From positions 1 through 42,602 of IMG/VR virus record IMGVR_UViG_3300049617_000251: DNA of 42,602 bases; one strand, given 5' to 3'. Below the pieces are notes generated by a model. That model had not been told where the DNA came from and ran no database searches. It saw only the letters and a program-made list of their open reading frames with translations. The stretch's first letter is position 1. Each line of letters opens with the position of its first letter. The DNA comes from a virus. Position numbers and translations under genes: made by a program. Below, piece by piece: positions 12,272 through 23,591 of this stretch.

Positions 12272-12793
12272 ATGGAAATAGAAGATATTACAGCTAATCT
12301 AAATAAGAAGAAAAAGAAAAATTCTGGAACTAAGGGAAAACGCACAGAAAGAAGTCTCTGCAAGATACTTTCTGAAAGATTCGGACCAGGGTTCAGCCGT
12401 ACTATTGGTTCTGGAAATCGTGTGTGGCAAGTTGGTAATATGCCTAAATGTGCCCAAGACACCTTTACAGGTGATATTGTAACACCTGAAGGATTTCTAT
12501 GGACATTTGAGAGTAAGGGTGGGTACGATATTGATTTCAACTCTATCTTTGGCGGCGGCAGTGCTGAACTTGATTCTTTTATCAAACAAGTAGAACTAGA
12601 AGGCAATCGCACTGGCAGGAAACCAGTCATTGCCTGGAAGAAAGACAGACGCCCCTGGCTAGTGATATTGAAGACAGCAGATCTCAACAAAACGGATTGG
12701 CCGTTCCGATTCATTTATCGGGATTGGTCCGTGATAGCTCTGAATGACTTCTTGACAGCCGAGGATTCATATTTTCTCAAAAGGTCCGGGTAA
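12272..12793 (+). CDS. PD-(D/E)XK nuclease, Holliday-junction-resolvase-like
   Basis: 173 aa. A basic N-terminus (KKKKKNSGTKGKRTER) precedes a helix with E26. D68 in FTGDIV and E80-x-K82 in TFESKGG follow, the order and spacing of the PD-(D/E)XK fold seen in archaeal Hjc-like resolvases and related phage nucleases. It also has a conserved-looking GRKPVIAWKKDRRPWLVIL strand pair. A role in resolving recombination or replication branches would suit the neighbouring recombination genes. The fold is fairly sure, the exact substrate is not. Its 3' end overlaps the convergent gene on the other strand by 27 nt. Confidence 0.65.
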   Translation: MEIEDITANLNKKKKKNSGTKGKRTERSLCKILSERFGPGFSRTIGSGNRVWQVGNMPKCAQDTFTGDIVTPEGFLWTFESKGGYDIDFNSIFGGGSAELDSFIKQVELEGNRTGRKPVIAWKKDRRPWLVILKTADLNKTDWPFRFIYRDWSVIALNDFLTAEDSYFLKRSG

Positions 12794-13069
12794 GCCAGCA
12801 AGATGTTTTTTGGTCGTATTTCTTACAAACTCATGATGTTCAGCATTGGTTTTTTTGTAATCTTCGACCTTTTCAGGGTGTCTCCAGATGTCTTCGATTT
12901 GTGCTGCCATGTGCAGCACGGCACCATAGCCAAACTTCTTGCACAGCATATTCAGTGCCTTGATAAGTCCAGCATCTCTTTGCCAGCTAACCATTTCAGG
13001 GGGCCAGGCATTCAGAGATTCGAGCAGGGTTTTATCTTCAACACCGTCAAACGCATGAGACTTATGCAT
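12767..13069 (-). CDS. Unknown protein, 100 aa, coupled to the ART/HD gene
   Basis: MHKSHAFDGVEDKTLLESL... is a soluble, mostly helical protein with segments ALNMLCKKFGYGAVLHMAAQIEDIW and TNAEHHEFVRN. I do not recognise a family. Its ATG shares one base with the TGA of the upstream ART/HD gene (TGATG), with TTGGAGAG upstream, so translation is probably coupled. A functional partner of the fusion protein is a reasonable inference from this coupling only. Confidence 0.7.
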   Translation of the reverse strand: MHKSHAFDGVEDKTLLESLNAWPPEMVSWQRDAGLIKALNMLCKKFGYGAVLHMAAQIEDIWRHPEKVEDYKKTNAEHHEFVRNTTKKHLAGLPGPFEKI

Positions 13070-14316
13070 CACACTCTCCAAATAAGTTGCTTTGCCGTCT
13101 TGGTGGAAAAAAACTTGGGATCGGGAGTAATTCCAACCATTGGCAGATCAAGCCGGTCTGCATCCCAACACGTTCCAATGGTAGGATCTTCAGAAACCTT
13201 CCCATCATTGTGAAAGCGACAGGCATACAGTAGCTTTTCGAGTCGGTCGCCGTCAAGAGGAATCAGATTCATGTTCTTCTTGATCCAATCAGCGGCCCGG
13301 TGGCCATGCCCAGGGTCTTCATTCTCGTTTTCACGCTTGCAATCATGGCAAACGGCGAAGAGTCGGCAAACTTCCTCGTCGGCGTTATTAATTCTGCAAA
13401 TCGTGATGGTATTGCTTTCGACACGTTCCCAGTGTTCTGGACCATGATGGGTAGTTCTCAATGGCAACACGAATTGTTTCTTGGTTTCGTTCAGGATATT
13501 TTCGAGCCAGTCGGGCCGTTGCAAAGAAGTGACAATCACTTGTTTTTTGACACTTCTTGGGAATGTGACGACCTCATATTCACCTCTCCTGAGAAAGACA
13601 GCGGTAATATCTTCCTTTTTGATGACGCCTCTGACAACATTCCACTTTGGATGGTTGAATCTCCTGGCAAACCAACGGGCTTTGGCTGGTGACAAGCTCC
13701 AAGCGTAGCCTTGACGGTTACGGGTCTGATAGCCACGGTAGACGACAACCTCATTGGGAAGGTTTTTGAAGAAGGCTTTTTCATCCTTGTTCATCATCTG
13801 GCGTGGACCATTACTTGCGGGACGCCCCAGCAGAAGATAATGGATGATTTTCTTGTATTGCCACATGTTTTCCGTATCGGTCCAGAGGTCAGCCAGAGTT
13901 GACCAATAATCTGCATCGGACAAATGGCACATGTGTTGCATGAAGATATCAAATCGGTAAGGTCGCTCGTATAGCCAGATGGCTCCGCTGAAATTTCCGT
14001 CTTTGATTCTCTGATCAATGTATTCTTGTTTGACTTTCAGCTGCTCATTGTACATGGCGTGCAACTGTTCTGAATAAGAGATGTCAAAGACGAGGGGGTG
14101 TTTCAGCATGGGGCCAAGGGGGCCTGCCTTCATGATGTATCGCTTCAGGTCGGGATGGAGATCTTCTTTACGCTTCAGGACTTCATCAATTGAAAGCATG
14201 GTTCGCTCGTAGCATACTAGGTTGTACCGTTTGCTTTCCTTGGGCATGTGAGAAAGGTCACGGCGTTTTGTCAAAAGCCAGCCTTGTTGGCGACCTCTTT
14301 CAGCATTATACCACAA
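13069..14316 (-). CDS. ADP-ribosyltransferase-like / HD-phosphohydrolase fusion protein
   Basis: 415 aa from the first ATG; starts at 14247 (MPKESK) or 14199 (MLSIDE) are possible as no clear ribosome site decides. Residues 190-250 carry the R-S-E signature of arginine-type ADP-ribosyltransferases: R194 in VVVYRG, S207 in YAWSLSPAKARWFA and E246-x-E248 in RRGEYEVV. Residues 288-400 form an HD domain: H295 in HGPEHWERV, H324-D325 in AVCHDCKREN, GHGHRAA and D386 in CWDADRLDL. T4 phages use ADP-ribosyltransferases (Alt, ModA, ModB) to modify host RNA polymerase and other proteins. A fusion to an HD hydrolase is not something I know from them. Function is inferred from domains only. Confidence 0.68.
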   Translation of the reverse strand: MWYNAERGRQQGWLLTKRRDLSHMPKESKRYNLVCYERTMLSIDEVLKRKEDLHPDLKRYIMKAGPLGPMLKHPLVFDISYSEQLHAMYNEQLKVKQEYIDQRIKDGNFSGAIWLYERPYRFDIFMQHMCHLSDADYWSTLADLWTDTENMWQYKKIIHYLLLGRPASNGPRQMMNKDEKAFFKNLPNEVVVYRGYQTRNRQGYAWSLSPAKARWFARRFNHPKWNVVRGVIKKEDITAVFLRRGEYEVVTFPRSVKKQVIVTSLQRPDWLENILNETKKQFVLPLRTTHHGPEHWERVESNTITICRINNADEEVCRLFAVCHDCKRENENEDPGHGHRAADWIKKNMNLIPLDGDRLEKLLYACRFHNDGKVSEDPTIGTCWDADRLDLPMVGITPDPKFFSTKTAKQLIWRV

Positions 14317-16062: not shown

Positions 16063-16803
16063 TTATTGAAAAATAAGCAACTGGTTTTTCTCACTTACAT
16101 AAGTATTGCCTCCGAAACACAACTTAAACCACACATCAAAAACACCGCAGCCAAGTTCTTCAGTGTCTATGAAATAAAATGCCCGGTTGTTTTCTCTAAA
16201 TTGTGTCGGGTCATCTTCTACTATTATTCTAAGGTCTTCCTCACATGGCAAACAATCTCCGCAATGTCTCGAAATACTCACGCTGACATCAGCGGCAGTA
16301 CACAGATTTTGATAATAGGCATCAAGATCGGTAGCTCTGGGGACATTAGGAATGACCTCAATCTCAATGAATTTCTTGCACCCATGACGCATTTTGTTAG
16401 GCTGGAAGTAGAAGCTGAAATCATAGACTATGGGAATAGGCGTCGTATACCATAAATCCTGATAGATAACAAACAAGTGATCAATAGTGGTTGATGGATC
16501 TCCTGGCTGGAACACAACGTCCCATTCATCAATGTAACGGCCCGTGTTTGTGTAAATTGCCGGATCGACAAAAAGGTTAAGAATGTATTGTCCCGTTTCC
16601 GGGTTGGTTACGCTAGACCCAGGAATTGTTTGAATTAAGGTTCTACCATCTGGATTGGCAGGAGATATGCCTGTAGGGTCCAAGTAATAGATGCTGACTG
16701 CGTTAACCGCCAATAGCGATGCACTGTTGTTGGAATTCAAAACGAACATTTGCAGGACAACCGTGTCGCCGATGACTGGATTTTGATAACGTTGTTTGAT
16801 CAT
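16063..16803 (-). CDS. Probable virion structural protein, 246 aa
   Basis: Beta-rich protein. The N-terminal half (IGDTVVLQMFVLNSNN, VSIYYLDPTGISP, GQYILNLFVDPAIYTNTGRYIDEWDVVF) has the look of an Ig-like or baseplate-associated beta-sandwich. The second half holds a Cys pair region (HCGDCLPCEEDL, about 180-191). It is translationally coupled to the upstream HNH gene by an ATGA overlap. Assignment to the virion rests on composition and position near the gp26-like baseplate genes, not on a recognised family. Confidence 0.6.
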   Translation of the reverse strand: MIKQRYQNPVIGDTVVLQMFVLNSNNSASLLAVNAVSIYYLDPTGISPANPDGRTLIQTIPGSSVTNPETGQYILNLFVDPAIYTNTGRYIDEWDVVFQPGDPSTTIDHLFVIYQDLWYTTPIPIVYDFSFYFQPNKMRHGCKKFIEIEVIPNVPRATDLDAYYQNLCTAADVSVSISRHCGDCLPCEEDLRIIVEDDPTQFRENNRAFYFIDTEELGCGVFDVWFKLCFGGNTYVSEKNQLLIFQ

Positions 16804-17153
16804 AAATTTTCTTCTTTGATTATGAATTTACATATGTTAACAAATAACTCTTGGTCGCTGTCTGATTGATTGCTGCATTCAATATACGCATTAGTTATTT
16901 TTTTCTCTGGCACACCAAACCCTTTGGATAAAAGAGGGAAATATCTCATGTTCCATATATTAGGAAGCAGCATCAGATTATCTATATGATCGTCTTCAAT
17001 TTTAGAGCATTGTCCGCTTTTATGATGCACCACAAATTCATTTGGAACTTCACCTTTGAAATATTGATAAACTGCTTTGGCATGTGGAACGTGATTCTTA
17101 TTTTCCTTATCGTCTCCGTTCATCATCGGCTGTAGTAGCTGTTCTGGCGTCAT
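16800..17153 (-). CDS. HNH-type endonuclease, shortened paralogue
   Basis: 117 aa. Residues 24-95 align with the C-terminal half of the 17853-18566 protein: HAKAVYQYFKGEVP, FVVHHKSGQ, DDHIDNLMLLP, IWNMRYFPLLSKGFGVPE. The catalytic HH and the D..NL part of the HNH core are kept. It lacks the two N-terminal CxCGCG zinc units of the longer copy, so it may be eroded. Both ends overlap neighbours by ATGA, so it is embedded in the operon. Confidence 0.72.
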   Translation of the reverse strand: MTPEQLLQPMMNGDDKENKNHVPHAKAVYQYFKGEVPNEFVVHHKSGQCSKIEDDHIDNLMLLPNIWNMRYFPLLSKGFGVPEKKITNAYIECSNQSDSDQELFVNICKFIIKEENL

Positions 17154-17494
17154 ATCTTCTCCAGTGGGAATTCTTTTACTGTTATTCTAAACTCAGACCT
17201 TCCGTCAGGAAAGTCGAGCCATTTTTCTGCCTTCAAATTCTTTACATTGATGATTGGCCATTCCTTTTTGATTTCCCCTGTGCTGCTTATTGAAAAGAGT
17301 TTGATTGCATCAATATCTGGAAATTGGTATTCGGATGGCCTTTTAATGAAGATTGCACGATCTATGTTGGGAGTTAAGGTCAACTTGGCCAATGATTCTT
17401 TTTCGACCTGTATTTCTTTTTTGTACATTTTAATGGCAAATAAGGTCATAGGTCTATTTTCAAACTTTGTGAGGTCTAAATCTAGTGTTTCCAT
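17150..17494 (-). CDS. Unknown protein, 114 aa
   Basis: METLDLDLTKFENRPMTLFAIKMYKKEIQVE... has alternating charged and hydrophobic residues that suggest a beta-rich domain. No motif is recognised. It overlaps the upstream gene by 13 nt and the downstream HNH gene by ATGA. It may belong with the structural protein at 16063-16803, between which the HNH genes appear to have inserted. Confidence 0.65.
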   Translation of the reverse strand: METLDLDLTKFENRPMTLFAIKMYKKEIQVEKESLAKLTLTPNIDRAIFIKRPSEYQFPDIDAIKLFSISSTGEIKKEWPIINVKNLKAEKWLDFPDGRSEFRITVKEFPLEKI

Positions 17495-17856
17495 ATGTAC
17501 TCCTGATTAACTTCGCCTGCCGTGATAGAGATTTTTTCGTCGGAATTTTCTTTGAAGTTTACCTTTTTAAGTTCTATTCGTTCCATAAGGACACCTAGGC
17601 CATCATAAAGATAGCAGACGGCACTTACATCTTCAGGGAGCGACATAAGAATATCATTGTCTACGCCGCTAATTGAGCCACACCAGGCTACTTTGGGAAG
17701 ATTTTTCAAGTTCTCTGAATAATTACCACAGCCTTCCCAAAGATACGATTCATCACATGGCCTGTTGCTAAGTTTAACGAACATCCTGTCAGTCAAAGTT
17801 CTTCTGCTAATAGGATCGTAGAAACCTATAACCCATTCAAACTTACTTTTATTCAT
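17482..17856 (-). CDS. Unknown protein, 124 aa
   Basis: MNKSKFEWVIGFYDPISRRTLTDRMFVKLSNRPC... is a soluble, beta-rich looking protein with four scattered cysteines. No family is recognised. Its ATG overlaps the TGA of the upstream HNH gene, so translation is probably coupled. Confidence 0.65.
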   Translation of the reverse strand: MNKSKFEWVIGFYDPISRRTLTDRMFVKLSNRPCDESYLWEGCGNYSENLKNLPKVAWCGSISGVDNDILMSLPEDVSAVCYLYDGLGVLMERIELKKVNFKENSDEKISITAGEVNQEYIWKH

Positions 17857-18566
17857 ACCGCCTCCAATAAAAAAGGAATGCCTTCCGTGGCATTCCCTGT
17901 TATTTCAATCAATGCACTGCAAAGTTTAGCGAATAAGGCTTCCTTAGTTAAAGTTTTGTCGAAGATTGATAAGTAAGTTTCAGTTACTGTTTCTTCTGGT
18001 ATTCCAAAACCTTTTGCCAATACAGGAAAGAACCTTAAATTCCATTCGTCTGGAAGTGGCATCAAGTTTTCAGGACGGTCATCGGTTATTTCGCTGTGTT
18101 TGCCATCCTTATGATGAACCACATATCCTTCTGGAATGTCTCCAAAATAATGCTCGTATACAGCCCGTGCGTGTAAGACACTTGTACTTTTGTTATTTTC
18201 TCTTACACAAGCGAACCATCTTTTGTCTTTACCTTTTTTACCTTTACAACTTATGAATGTATCTGGAATGTACGGACTAAATATTGGATCACGTCTCCAG
18301 CGATCTTTTACTCGTTTAATCCTTTTTTCCATTGTGAACACAACACCTTTGGTGTGATGGTTCCAGATATAATCTCTGATATGTCCGCTTGGCAATGGAT
18401 TTATTTCACGTCCACAGCCACATTTGCAATAATGTTTTTCCGATGGTGGGATTTGATACTCACGATTACGCATGTGGTGTCCACGCAAGAACGAGCTTGT
18501 TCTGTTGTTCTTCCATACCCTAACCTCACCGCCGCATCCACAAGCACAATATCTTTTTTCTTCCAT
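17853..18566 (-). CDS. HNH-type homing endonuclease
   Basis: 237 aa; the start at 18566 is set by AAGGAG 6 nt upstream. Two Cys-rich units, CACGCGGEVR and CKCGCGREI, lie in the first 60 residues and are each followed by an RGHH or NHH histidine pair. The HNH core is HARAVYEHYFGDIPEGYVVHHKDGK...DDRPENLMPLP (about 133-185). The paralogue at 16800-17153 shares this core. It is the first gene of an overlapping operon of five. Confidence 0.8.
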   Translation of the reverse strand: MEEKRYCACGCGGEVRVWKNNRTSSFLRGHHMRNREYQIPPSEKHYCKCGCGREINPLPSGHIRDYIWNHHTKGVVFTMEKRIKRVKDRWRRDPIFSPYIPDTFISCKGKKGKDKRWFACVRENNKSTSVLHARAVYEHYFGDIPEGYVVHHKDGKHSEITDDRPENLMPLPDEWNLRFFPVLAKGFGIPEETVTETYLSIFDKTLTKEALFAKLCSALIEITGNATEGIPFLLEAV

Positions 18567-18640
18567 TTCTTGCTCCTTATAAAAATAAGCCATTTCTTAT
18601 CTATTATAGGAGCAAGAAAAAATCAAGTCAAACCTTCAAA

Positions 18641-20648: not shown

Positions 20649-21536
20649 ATGCTTAACGAAGCCCAAATCAGACAAATGGTGGTCATGGCAAGTAATCCTA
20701 ACTTAAAACGCAAAGATATTAGGCAAATTTTTGGATTATCCAAGGCATCTTTTAATGACATCCTCACAGGAAAAAGTTACAAATATATTGCTAGACCCTT
20801 ATGCCTGCCTAAAGCTAGGATACGTGAGAATCTGCCTGGACTATCGTGGAGACAATTAGAGATCATTAACGGGTCAATGTTAGGAGATGGATCTATAAAG
20901 ACACAAAAGAATTCTTACTTTAGAAAATCTCAAAGTAATGATAATCTTGAATATTTGCAATGGATGTTTGATGAATTACATCCATATTCATGTTCAATTA
21001 ATCCAAAATTTAGCTGCAAGCCAATTCATGAGGGCCGAGAAATTGTTGGTTGTTCTCAAGAGCGAACTCTGCATCAGGAATTTTCTTCTATCCACCATCG
21101 TGTTTTTTGTTCTCTTGATAAGAAGTGGTATCTGTTAGACCATCAAGGACAATTTGTTTTGGATGAACATGGATGGAAAATAAAAGTTGTGCCAACTGAT
21201 TTAGAAATTACTCCATTAATGTTGGCTATTTGGTATTGCGACGATGGGAGCAACGACCAAAAACATGGACGGATAAGGTTATGCACGCATGGATTTGATA
21301 AGCAATATGTTGATTATCTATCGTATCAGTTATCGAAAGGATTCAAGCTAGAAACAAATGTATGGTTCGATCAAACTGGCCATGTCATCGAAATTCGCAG
21401 GAGAAACTATCTTGATTTCATTGATATAGTTAAACCGTACATCCATTTTGATTGTTTAAACTATAAAACAGTAACGAAAAATTATGTCGCTCCCAAGTAT
21501 TTCAAGAGACCTTATCATCATAAGAGGAGAATTTAA
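20649..21536 (+). CDS. LAGLIDADG homing endonuclease
   Basis: 295 aa; AAGGAGG lies 10 nt upstream of the ATG. Residues 1-45 look like a helix-turn-helix (RKDIRQIFGLSKASFNDILTG). The first LAGLIDADG helix is IINGSMLGDGSI (about 73-82) and the second LMLAIWYCDDGS (about 189-200), each with its acidic catalytic residue. Two motifs in one chain means it acts as a monomer. Not inside an intron as far as visible; it is free-standing, with TAATG overlap to the next gene. Confidence 0.85.
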   Translation: MLNEAQIRQMVVMASNPNLKRKDIRQIFGLSKASFNDILTGKSYKYIARPLCLPKARIRENLPGLSWRQLEIINGSMLGDGSIKTQKNSYFRKSQSNDNLEYLQWMFDELHPYSCSINPKFSCKPIHEGREIVGCSQERTLHQEFSSIHHRVFCSLDKKWYLLDHQGQFVLDEHGWKIKVVPTDLEITPLMLAIWYCDDGSNDQKHGRIRLCTHGFDKQYVDYLSYQLSKGFKLETNVWFDQTGHVIEIRRRNYLDFIDIVKPYIHFDCLNYKTVTKNYVAPKYFKRPYHHKRRI

Positions 21537-22487: not shown

Positions 22488-22517
22488 TCATACAGCATAA
22501 ATAACTGTATGATTAAA
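22483..22517 (+). promoter_or_regulatory. 13-bp inverted repeat enclosing a late promoter and start codon
   Basis: TTTAATCATACAG (22483-22495) and CTGTATGATTAAA (22505-22517) are perfect complements. The 9-nt spacer is CATAAATAA, a T4-like late promoter box. The ATG of the sedolisin (22509) lies in the 3' arm and the stop codon of the upstream gene in the 5' arm. In a read-through transcript the start would be buried in a hairpin; a transcript starting at the late promoter would lack the 5' arm. Confidence 0.75.
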
Positions 22518-23591
22518 TCCTATATTCGTTTTCCAAAGATCAAATTTTCAGCGGCTCAGTCCCTTTCCTACTATCCAACTCAAGTAGCAGAGTTGTACAA
22601 GTTCCCAAAACGTACTGGGAAAGGATGCAAAATTGGATTTATTGAGCTTGGCGGCGGTTACGCAAAAAGTGACCTTAATACTTTCTTTCATACGTTGAAC
22701 TTACCTGTCCCTATAGTAAAAGACCGTCTTATCGATGGGGCTACCAATTCTCCAGACGGCATCAATGGGGCACAAGGGGAAGTTACTTTAGACATAGAGG
22801 TTGGACTAGCAGTAGCCCCGCAAGCAGAGGGTATTGTTTATTTTGCTCCTAACTCCAATGATGGCTTCTTAAATGCAATCAAAGCAGCAATTGCTGACAA
22901 AGTAGATGCAATCAGCATTAGCTGGGGAGGTCCAGAAAACCAATGGTCCCCTTCAGACATGCATGCTTACGATGCTGTTTTTCATGCAACGAATATCCCA
23001 ATATTTGTCGCCGCTGGCGATAACGGCAGTGGTGATGGAGAATCTGGCCAACATGTGGACTTTCCTGGATCGAGTCCCCATGTCATTTGCTGCGGCGGCA
23101 CAACACTTATCGGGAACGTAAGTAGTAGCGGCATTCAGTCTGAAACTGTTTGGAACGATGGCTCTCAGGGCGGTGCGACAGGTGGAGGATTCTCTGCAAT
23201 ATTTGGCCGTCCAAGCTATCAATCACACATAGGATTCACTTCTAATAAACAAAGAGGAGTTCCAGATATCGCAGGCAATGCAGATCCTAACACGGGCTAC
23301 AATTGCTACATTGCCGGACAATGGCTACCAATCGGCGGAACAAGTGCTTGTGCCCCTTTATTTGCTGGATTATACTGTTTGCTAAAAGAAGCACTCGGTA
23401 ATGCGAACTTTTTTCTTGGATTTTTATATCAATATCATCAACATTGCATTCGTGATATCACAGAAGGCAACAATGGAGCTTATAAATCTGCTAAGGGGTG
23501 GGATGCTTGCACTGGCTGGGGAGTCCCTGTTGGCGAAGAGATGTTGCAAGAATTAGCTCAAGCTATTGGACCGCCAGTGGTTGTGCCTTAA
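22509..23591 (+). CDS. Sedolisin-family serine-carboxyl peptidase (S53), no pro-domain
   Basis: 360 aa, matching only the mature catalytic part of kumamolisin-like enzymes. Catalytic residues are complete: E91 and D95 in GEVTLDIEV, D171 in AAGDNG (oxyanion hole) and S279 in GGTSACAP. The calcium site DITEGNNGAY...GWDACTGWG is present near 316-338. There is no signal peptide and no pro-peptide of about 190 residues, which such enzymes normally need for folding and latency. Sedolisins usually act at acid pH on unfolded proteins. Expression is probably late, from the box at 22496. A role in lysis, head maturation or particle entry is possible; none is shown. Confidence 0.9.
   Translation: MIKSYIRFPKIKFSAAQSLSYYPTQVAELYKFPKRTGKGCKIGFIELGGGYAKSDLNTFFHTLNLPVPIVKDRLIDGATNSPDGINGAQGEVTLDIEVGLAVAPQAEGIVYFAPNSNDGFLNAIKAAIADKVDAISISWGGPENQWSPSDMHAYDAVFHATNIPIFVAAGDNGSGDGESGQHVDFPGSSPHVICCGGTTLIGNVSSSGIQSETVWNDGSQGGATGGGFSAIFGRPSYQSHIGFTSNKQRGVPDIAGNADPNTGYNCYIAGQWLPIGGTSACAPLFAGLYCLLKEALGNANFFLGFLYQYHQHCIRDITEGNNGAYKSAKGWDACTGWGVPVGEEMLQELAQAIGPPVVVP

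What the first reader, a model, noticed from the sequence alone, without database searches (positions are those of the whole stretch)
12767..14316. ADP-ribosyltransferase-like domain fused to an HD hydrolase, coupled to a small unknown gene
R194, S207 and E246-x-E248 mark an R-S-E type transferase; H295, H324-D325 and D386 mark an HD domain. I know of no such fusion among T4-like ADP-ribosyltransferases. The two activities could be writer and eraser, or the HD part may act on a nucleotide signal. A 100-aa protein follows with TGATG coupling and could be a regulator or immunity partner, so a new phage takeover or toxin-antitoxin-like system is possible.
Basis: partly seen in the sequence, partly recalled or inferred. 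Interest (0 to 1): 0.72.

Follow-up and report, generated by a model that had tools for sequence, protein, structure and literature searches.

The report
Phage ADP-ribosyltransferase fused to HD hydrolase
A family of large bacterial viruses makes one protein that joins an enzyme predicted to attach ADP-ribose to cell components with a second enzyme predicted to cut phosphate bonds, a pairing that I could not find described in phages before.

Summary
The fusion is real. One minus-strand gene (13069-14199, ~376 aa; the TTG start at 14316 is probably too far upstream) encodes an ADP-ribosyltransferase (ART)-like core and a C-terminal HD phosphohydrolase. AlphaFold2 gives mean pLDDT 93; 47 of the 50 best structural matches of the N-terminal half are ART chains (each modest, Z up to 6.6), with Arg on core strand 1 and ExE before strand 5. 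The HD half matches HD hydrolases (Z 16) and has the extended H..HD..H..H..D set. The Ser of R-S-E is shifted (Ala-Trp-Ser instead of Ser-Trp-Thr), and D386 is really D385. The fusion occurs in 17 viral contigs (up to 533 kb), is one clade in both domain trees, and both halves are under purifying selection. A distant plasmid protein has the same order. The coupled 100-aa gene looks coding but has no relative anywhere searched, so it is no conserved partner; relatives instead share another unknown neighbour gene (14 of 17 contigs), often with MoxR and vWA genes. Best reading: a bifunctional effector that ADP-ribosylates a target and whose HD domain cuts the ADP-ribose pyrophosphate; a nucleotide-signal role for the HD half is nearly as likely. 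Activity is untested.

The parts
13069..14199 (-). ART-HD fusion gene, 376 aa plus stop (upstream in-frame alternatives ATG 14247, TTG 14316)
   Evidence: ORF; start by alignment with relatives; conserved fusion
13759..14199 (-). N-terminal helical part, residues 1-147, with family motifs HPLV, ERP[YH]R, W[TS]D[ST]EN
   Evidence: alignments A5/A10; model
13525..13758 (-). ART-like core, residues 148-225, six strands
   Evidence: models and structural matches
13735..13737 (-).
   Evidence: R in 46 of 49 aligned homologs
13696..13704 (-). A166-W167-S168, the S-W-T motif of relatives, with Ala at the usual Ser
13573..13581 (-). E207-Y208-E209, ExE motif before core strand 5
13072..13524 (-). linker and HD domain, residues 226-376
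   Evidence: structural match 2pq7 Z 16.2; A3/A10
13432..13434 (-).
13342..13347 (-).
13306..13308 (-). H298, extra His of the extended (dinuclear) motif
   Evidence: motif rule in PMC8177086
13210..13212 (-). H330, second extra His of the extended motif
   Evidence: PMC8177086
13162..13164 (-).
12767..13069 (-). 100-aa orphan gene coupled by TGATG; coding-like, no known relative; not a conserved partner

Best explanation
A bifunctional phage effector. The N-terminal ART domain transfers ADP-ribose from NAD+ to a host (or phage) macromolecule, and the fused HD domain, a metal-dependent (probably two-metal) phosphohydrolase, cuts the pyrophosphate of the ADP-ribose that the first domain makes, releasing AMP and leaving a phosphoribosyl mark or clearing free ADP-ribose. 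Shown by computation: the fusion, both folds, conserved catalytic sets, purifying selection on both halves, one old origin in large phages. Inferred: catalytic activity, the substrate of each half, and that the two steps are coupled. The gene lies beside tail/baseplate genes, so packaging in the virion and delivery at infection is plausible but not shown.
For: ART: 47 of the top 50 structural matches of the N-terminal model are ART-superfamily chains; R on core strand 1 and ExE before strand 5 of the model, near-invariant in 49 homologs. HD: Z 16.2 to HD hydrolase 2pq7 and 12.6 to the nucleotide pyrophosphohydrolase YpgQ; all residues of H..HD..H..H..D conserved in 54 homologs (for L099 see the alignment); this set is called diagnostic of a dinuclear site, as in the Ap4A hydrolase YqeK (PMC8177086), which cuts a phosphoanhydride in a dinucleotide. 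Coupling: phage fusions are one clade (N tree 95/100; HD tree 98/93), kept while diverging to ~45% identity; dN/dS in the closest informative pair 0.043 (ART) and 0.081 (HD); the same order with all ligands in a distant Aneurinibacillus plasmid protein placed elsewhere in both trees; SidE proteins independently pair a mART with an HD-like phosphodiesterase that cuts ADP-ribose on the target (PMC6941232), and their PDE domains appear in the HD fold list (Z ~12).
Against: No activity data. Individual ART matches are weak (Foldseek E >= 0.07; Z <= 6.6). The usual Ser is Ala166 here. Many phages carry either domain alone with no copy of the other in the same record, so each can work without the other. 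Fold likeness of the HD half to SidE PDEs is likeness to a common fold; HD substrates cannot be read from sequence.
Confidence: 0.42

Rival explanations
1. Two-warhead effector: the ART domain modifies a host macromolecule, as T4 Alt/Mod or AcrIF11 do, while the HD domain independently destroys a nucleotide signal of host immunity or stress (cyclic dinucleotide, alarmone, Ap4A, ADP-ribose derivative). Fusion only ensures joint delivery.
For: Each domain is common alone in phages. HD-family phosphodiesterases are proposed counter-signal enzymes in jumbo phages (PMC7824862); phage ARTs that modify host targets are known, incl. AcrIF11 (PMC11383003) and the survey PMC9503650. A dinuclear HD motif suits bulky nucleotides (PMC8177086).
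Against: The same ART-then-HD order appears again in a distant plasmid protein, and ART with an HD-like PDE in SidE, which is more than expected of random pairs.
Confidence: 0.33
2. [quoted passage not shown]
For: Tpt1/KptA are the best structural matches (Z 5.8-6.6). A lone HD homolog lies near an RNA ligase gene in Vibrio phage D148.
Against: KptA belongs to the H-H-h clade (PMC9503650), whereas this family has R and ExE; the fusion clusters sit by tail, MoxR and vWA genes, not RNA-repair genes.
Confidence: 0.12
3. A virion-assembly protein with degenerate or regulatory domains: the fusion acts with the MoxR-vWA chaperone pair and the unknown neighbour in tail assembly.
For: MoxR AAA, vWA-metallopeptidase, unknown gene and fusion are adjacent in many contigs; MoxR-vWA in jumbo phages is proposed to serve virion assembly (PMC7824862); Ala166 in the window.
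Against: Catalytic residues of both domains are nearly invariant, and the window, L150 and L159 lack those neighbours.
Confidence: 0.08
4. Toxin-antitoxin-like pair of the fusion and the 100-aa gene.
For: TGATG coupling and coding-like composition.
Against: No relative of the 100-aa protein anywhere searched and none beside 16 other fusions.
Confidence: 0.05

Closest known systems
phrog_4776 (phage protein family of unknown function; over 100 actinobacterial phage records, e.g. LeBron gp117)
   Same: Whole N-terminal part, E 1.1e-62, ~35% identity; R, S/T and ExE conserved
   Different: Relatives are standalone ~230-250 aa proteins without an HD domain
Standalone HD proteins of the Vibrio phage D148 and Roseobacter phage CRP-901 kind
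   Same: HD domain 43-44% identical with identical ligand set
   Different: No ART part in the protein or in the record
Legionella SidE-type mART-PDE proteins (named only; not fetched)
   Same: One polypeptide with an ART and an HD-like phosphodiesterase; PDE chains match the HD half in fold
   Different: No sequence relation detected; PDE catalytic residues are His/Glu/His (PMC6941232) instead of an HD metal set; PDE precedes mART; they act in eukaryotic cells
T4 Alt/ModA/ModB and AcrIF11
   Same: Phage ARTs acting on host or defence proteins (PMC9503650, PMC11383003)
   Different: No sequence match to any ART family in Pfam, and in PHROGs only unknown families; no HD domain
YqeK and YpgQ HD hydrolases
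   Same: HD fold (Z 10-13); extended six-residue motif as in YqeK
   Different: Low identity (16-19%); not fused to an ART; substrate unknown here

Membership tests
ART superfamily | Split six-strand sheet of the ART core | tested here: met
   Six strands in residues 150-223, pLDDT ~92; 47 of 50 best rows are ARTs, though each Z <= 6.6
ART superfamily, R-S-E clade | Arg on the first strand | tested here: met
   R155; R in 46 of 49 homologs
ART superfamily, R-S-E clade | Ser of the second-strand motif | tested here: inconclusive
   Ala166 in the window, Ser in 44 of 49 homologs; hydroxyl residue at 168
ART superfamily, R-S-E clade | ExE glutamates before strand 5 | tested here: met
   E207-x-E209
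ART superfamily | NAD+ binding and ADP-ribosyl transfer | not testable with these tools
   needs an assay
HD superfamily | HD fold | tested here: met
   2pq7 Z 16.2, rmsd 3.3, 148 aligned
HD superfamily | H..HD..D ligands | tested here: met
   H256, H285, D286, D346
HD superfamily, dinuclear type | two further His between HD and D | tested here: met
   H298 and H330 conserved; rule from PMC8177086; metal content itself not testable
SidE family | mART plus HD-like PDE in one chain | tested here: met
   ART plus HD-fold domain
SidE family | PDE-before-mART order and sequence homology | tested here: not met
   ART first, HD second; no sequence match in phmmer of PDB chains
KptA/Tpt1 | H-H-h active site | tested here: not met
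   R and ExE instead
Toxin-antitoxin module | conserved partner gene | tested here: not met
   100-aa gene absent beside 16 other fusions

The most novel reading that the evidence does not exclude
Phages evolved, independently of SidE, a one-protein machine that ADP-ribosylates a target and then converts the mark to phosphoribosyl, possibly joining the target to a second molecule.
Probability: 0.15. Interest if true: 0.88.

Novelty: new variant of a known kind. Interest (0 to 1): 0.6.

Why it matters
It assigns a likely enzyme fold to phrog_4776, an unknown family in over 100 sequenced phages, and shows a stable ART-HD architecture in very large phages. If the HD part processes the ART product, phages use a two-step modification chemistry so far known from Legionella; a direct mass-spectrometry test (+541 against +212 Da) can decide.

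Tried and rejected
100-aa partner idea: searched phages, viral contigs and all fetched loci, nothing. Pfam, NCBIfam and PADLOC gave no family for the fusion except a sub-threshold HD match. PDB sequence search empty. First genome-contig query was too diverse to make patterns; a narrower one gave 7 sporadic bacterial N-domain genes, none fused; 398 Pseudomonadota genomes held no fusion of this kind. The full-length fold search was filled by HD matches, so the N-terminal half was modelled alone. No T4 Alt/Mod or AcrIF11 chain appeared in the fold lists; that is not evidence against kinship. Literature searches found no described ART-HD fusion in phages, but supplements and most subscription papers could not be searched.

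Full report
OBSERVATION. Homologs begin at the ATG at 14199, so I number from there: R155, A166-W167-S168, E207, E209, H256, H285-D286, H298, H330, D346. The TGATG overlap with a 100-aa ORF is real and that ORF has the codon composition of this phage's genes. Its 3' end overlaps the convergent PDDEXK nuclease gene at 12272-12793.

N-TERMINAL HALF. PHROGs puts residues 43-259 of the long reading in phrog_4776, unknown function, E 1.1e-62. tblastn finds it alone in 102 Mycobacterium phage records and a few Gordonia phages. Models of the full protein (46 sequences; mean pLDDT 93.4, pTM 0.76) and of the N-terminal half alone (25 sequences; 92.6, pTM 0.85) agree on a helical first part and a six-stranded core at 148-225. 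Foldseek against the PDB gives nothing significant for this half (best E 0.07), but when the 1000 best-ranked chains are realigned, 47 of the top 50 are ART-superfamily chains (Tpt1/KptA, TreTu/TreX, Tse6, cholix, LT-II, cholera toxin, ExoS, ParT, tankyrase, PARP13 and others), Z 4.4-6.6, mostly aligned over residues ~145-229 (that these chains are ARTs is from their titles and my own knowledge). Single values are below the level that would convince alone; the near-unanimity, and the placing of R155 on strand 1, the S-W-T motif on strand 2 and ExE just before strand 5, make an ART core the best reading. Over 49 homologs R155 is Arg in 46, E207 Glu in 45, E209 Glu in 45. That leaves some doubt on the window's own activity.

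C-TERMINAL HALF. Residues 223-376 match HD hydrolase 2pq7 at Z 16.2 (24% identity), YpgQ at 12.6, and further down SidE-type PDE domains at ~12 and YqeK at ~10. HD ligands are invariant or nearly so, including the two extra histidines that a review takes as diagnostic for a dinuclear site (PMC8177086). Lone homologs occur in Vibrio phage D148, Roseobacter phage CRP-901 and dozens of viral contigs.

THE FUSION. Fused proteins (open frames of 381-440 codons) occur in 17 viral contigs including the window and the frameshifted L002; some contigs are very long (436 kb and 533 kb). Phage fusions are a single clade in the N-domain tree (95/100) and, with the L002 piece, in the HD tree (98/93): one fusion event, then descent to about 45% identity. 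dN/dS is 0.043 (ART part) and 0.081 (HD part) between L131 and L134, and 0.05-0.08 in pairs nearer saturation, so both halves are maintained. N-only records hold no HD gene and HD-only records no N gene of these kinds. A 456-aa protein of an Aneurinibacillus plasmid, about 21% identical, has the same order and all ligands and falls elsewhere in both trees, though on long branches: possibly a second, independent fusion. In 398 Pseudomonadota genomes no such fusion was found.

NEIGHBOURS. The 100-aa gene has no relative in annotated phages, viral contigs or any fetched locus. Instead, a 376-487-aa protein without any family (alignment A9) lies next to the fusion, in some contigs overlapping it (L013, L015, L046). 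Searching viral contigs with that protein alone brought 7 contigs not seen before, and 7 of 7 carried the fusion. It is present in 14 of 17 fusion contigs, absent in the window, L150 and L159. In most of those a MoxR-type AAA ATPase and a DUF2201/vWA protein precede it. A MoxR-vWA(-metallopeptidase) pair has been proposed as virion-assembly chaperones of jumbo phages (PMC7824862). Much of this is shared synteny of related phages, so it suggests rather than proves function. In the window the fusion lies at the end of a minus-strand block that includes baseplate, tail-tube and sheath-stabiliser genes, and the contexts of phage ARTs near morphogenesis genes have been read as packaging (PMC9503650).

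MECHANISM. I commit to a bifunctional effector: ADP-ribosylation by the first domain, cleavage of the ADP-ribose pyrophosphate by the second. Reasons: maintained together, same order twice, an HD type that suits phosphoanhydrides in dinucleotides, and the SidE precedent in which a mART product is cut by an HD-like phosphodiesterase (PMC6941232). It is not a SidE member: other order, other catalytic set, no sequence match. Rivals are listed; the two-warhead reading is nearly as likely.

NOVELTY. ART effectors and HD hydrolases are known; their fusion in phages, to my knowledge and in the searches made, is not described. I file it as a new variant of a known kind.

Noticed in passing
A9: L015:6089-7216, L046:2079-3230, L013:3653-5005: Conserved unknown gene next to the ART-HD fusion (motifs GPK[LI]FRP and SPRxHWRRGHW), no Pfam family; finding it predicted the fusion in 7 of 7 new contigs.
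   Followed up: partly
L122:679-2088: Protein of a small (0.9 Mb) genome with an HD domain of this kind behind an N-terminus with YHGT...HFGxxYAA, which looks like an ART of another (H-Y) type; a possible further independent ART-HD fusion. Not tested by structure.
   Followed up: no
L099 record NZ_CP116888.1, 81633-82169 and 90991-91611: Two more N-domain copies on the Aneurinibacillus plasmid, each with one in-frame TAA.
   Followed up: no
L005:2209-4967: In Vibrio phage D148 the lone HD gene lies near an RNA ligase gene and next to a CYTH-domain gene.
   Followed up: no
L004 and L010 (phages LeBron, Aegeus): Standalone N-domain genes of these mycobacteriophages sit at the edge of large tRNA arrays.
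   Followed up: no
window 20649-21536, 16800-18593: LAGLIDADG and HNH endonuclease genes among the structural genes of the window.
   Followed up: no
window 22509-23591: Subtilase-family protease gene near tail genes.
   Followed up: no
BFVD search of the N-terminal model (window 13513-14199): Several RIIB proteins appear as weak structural matches (E 0.03-0.4, low probability); probably chance.
   Followed up: no
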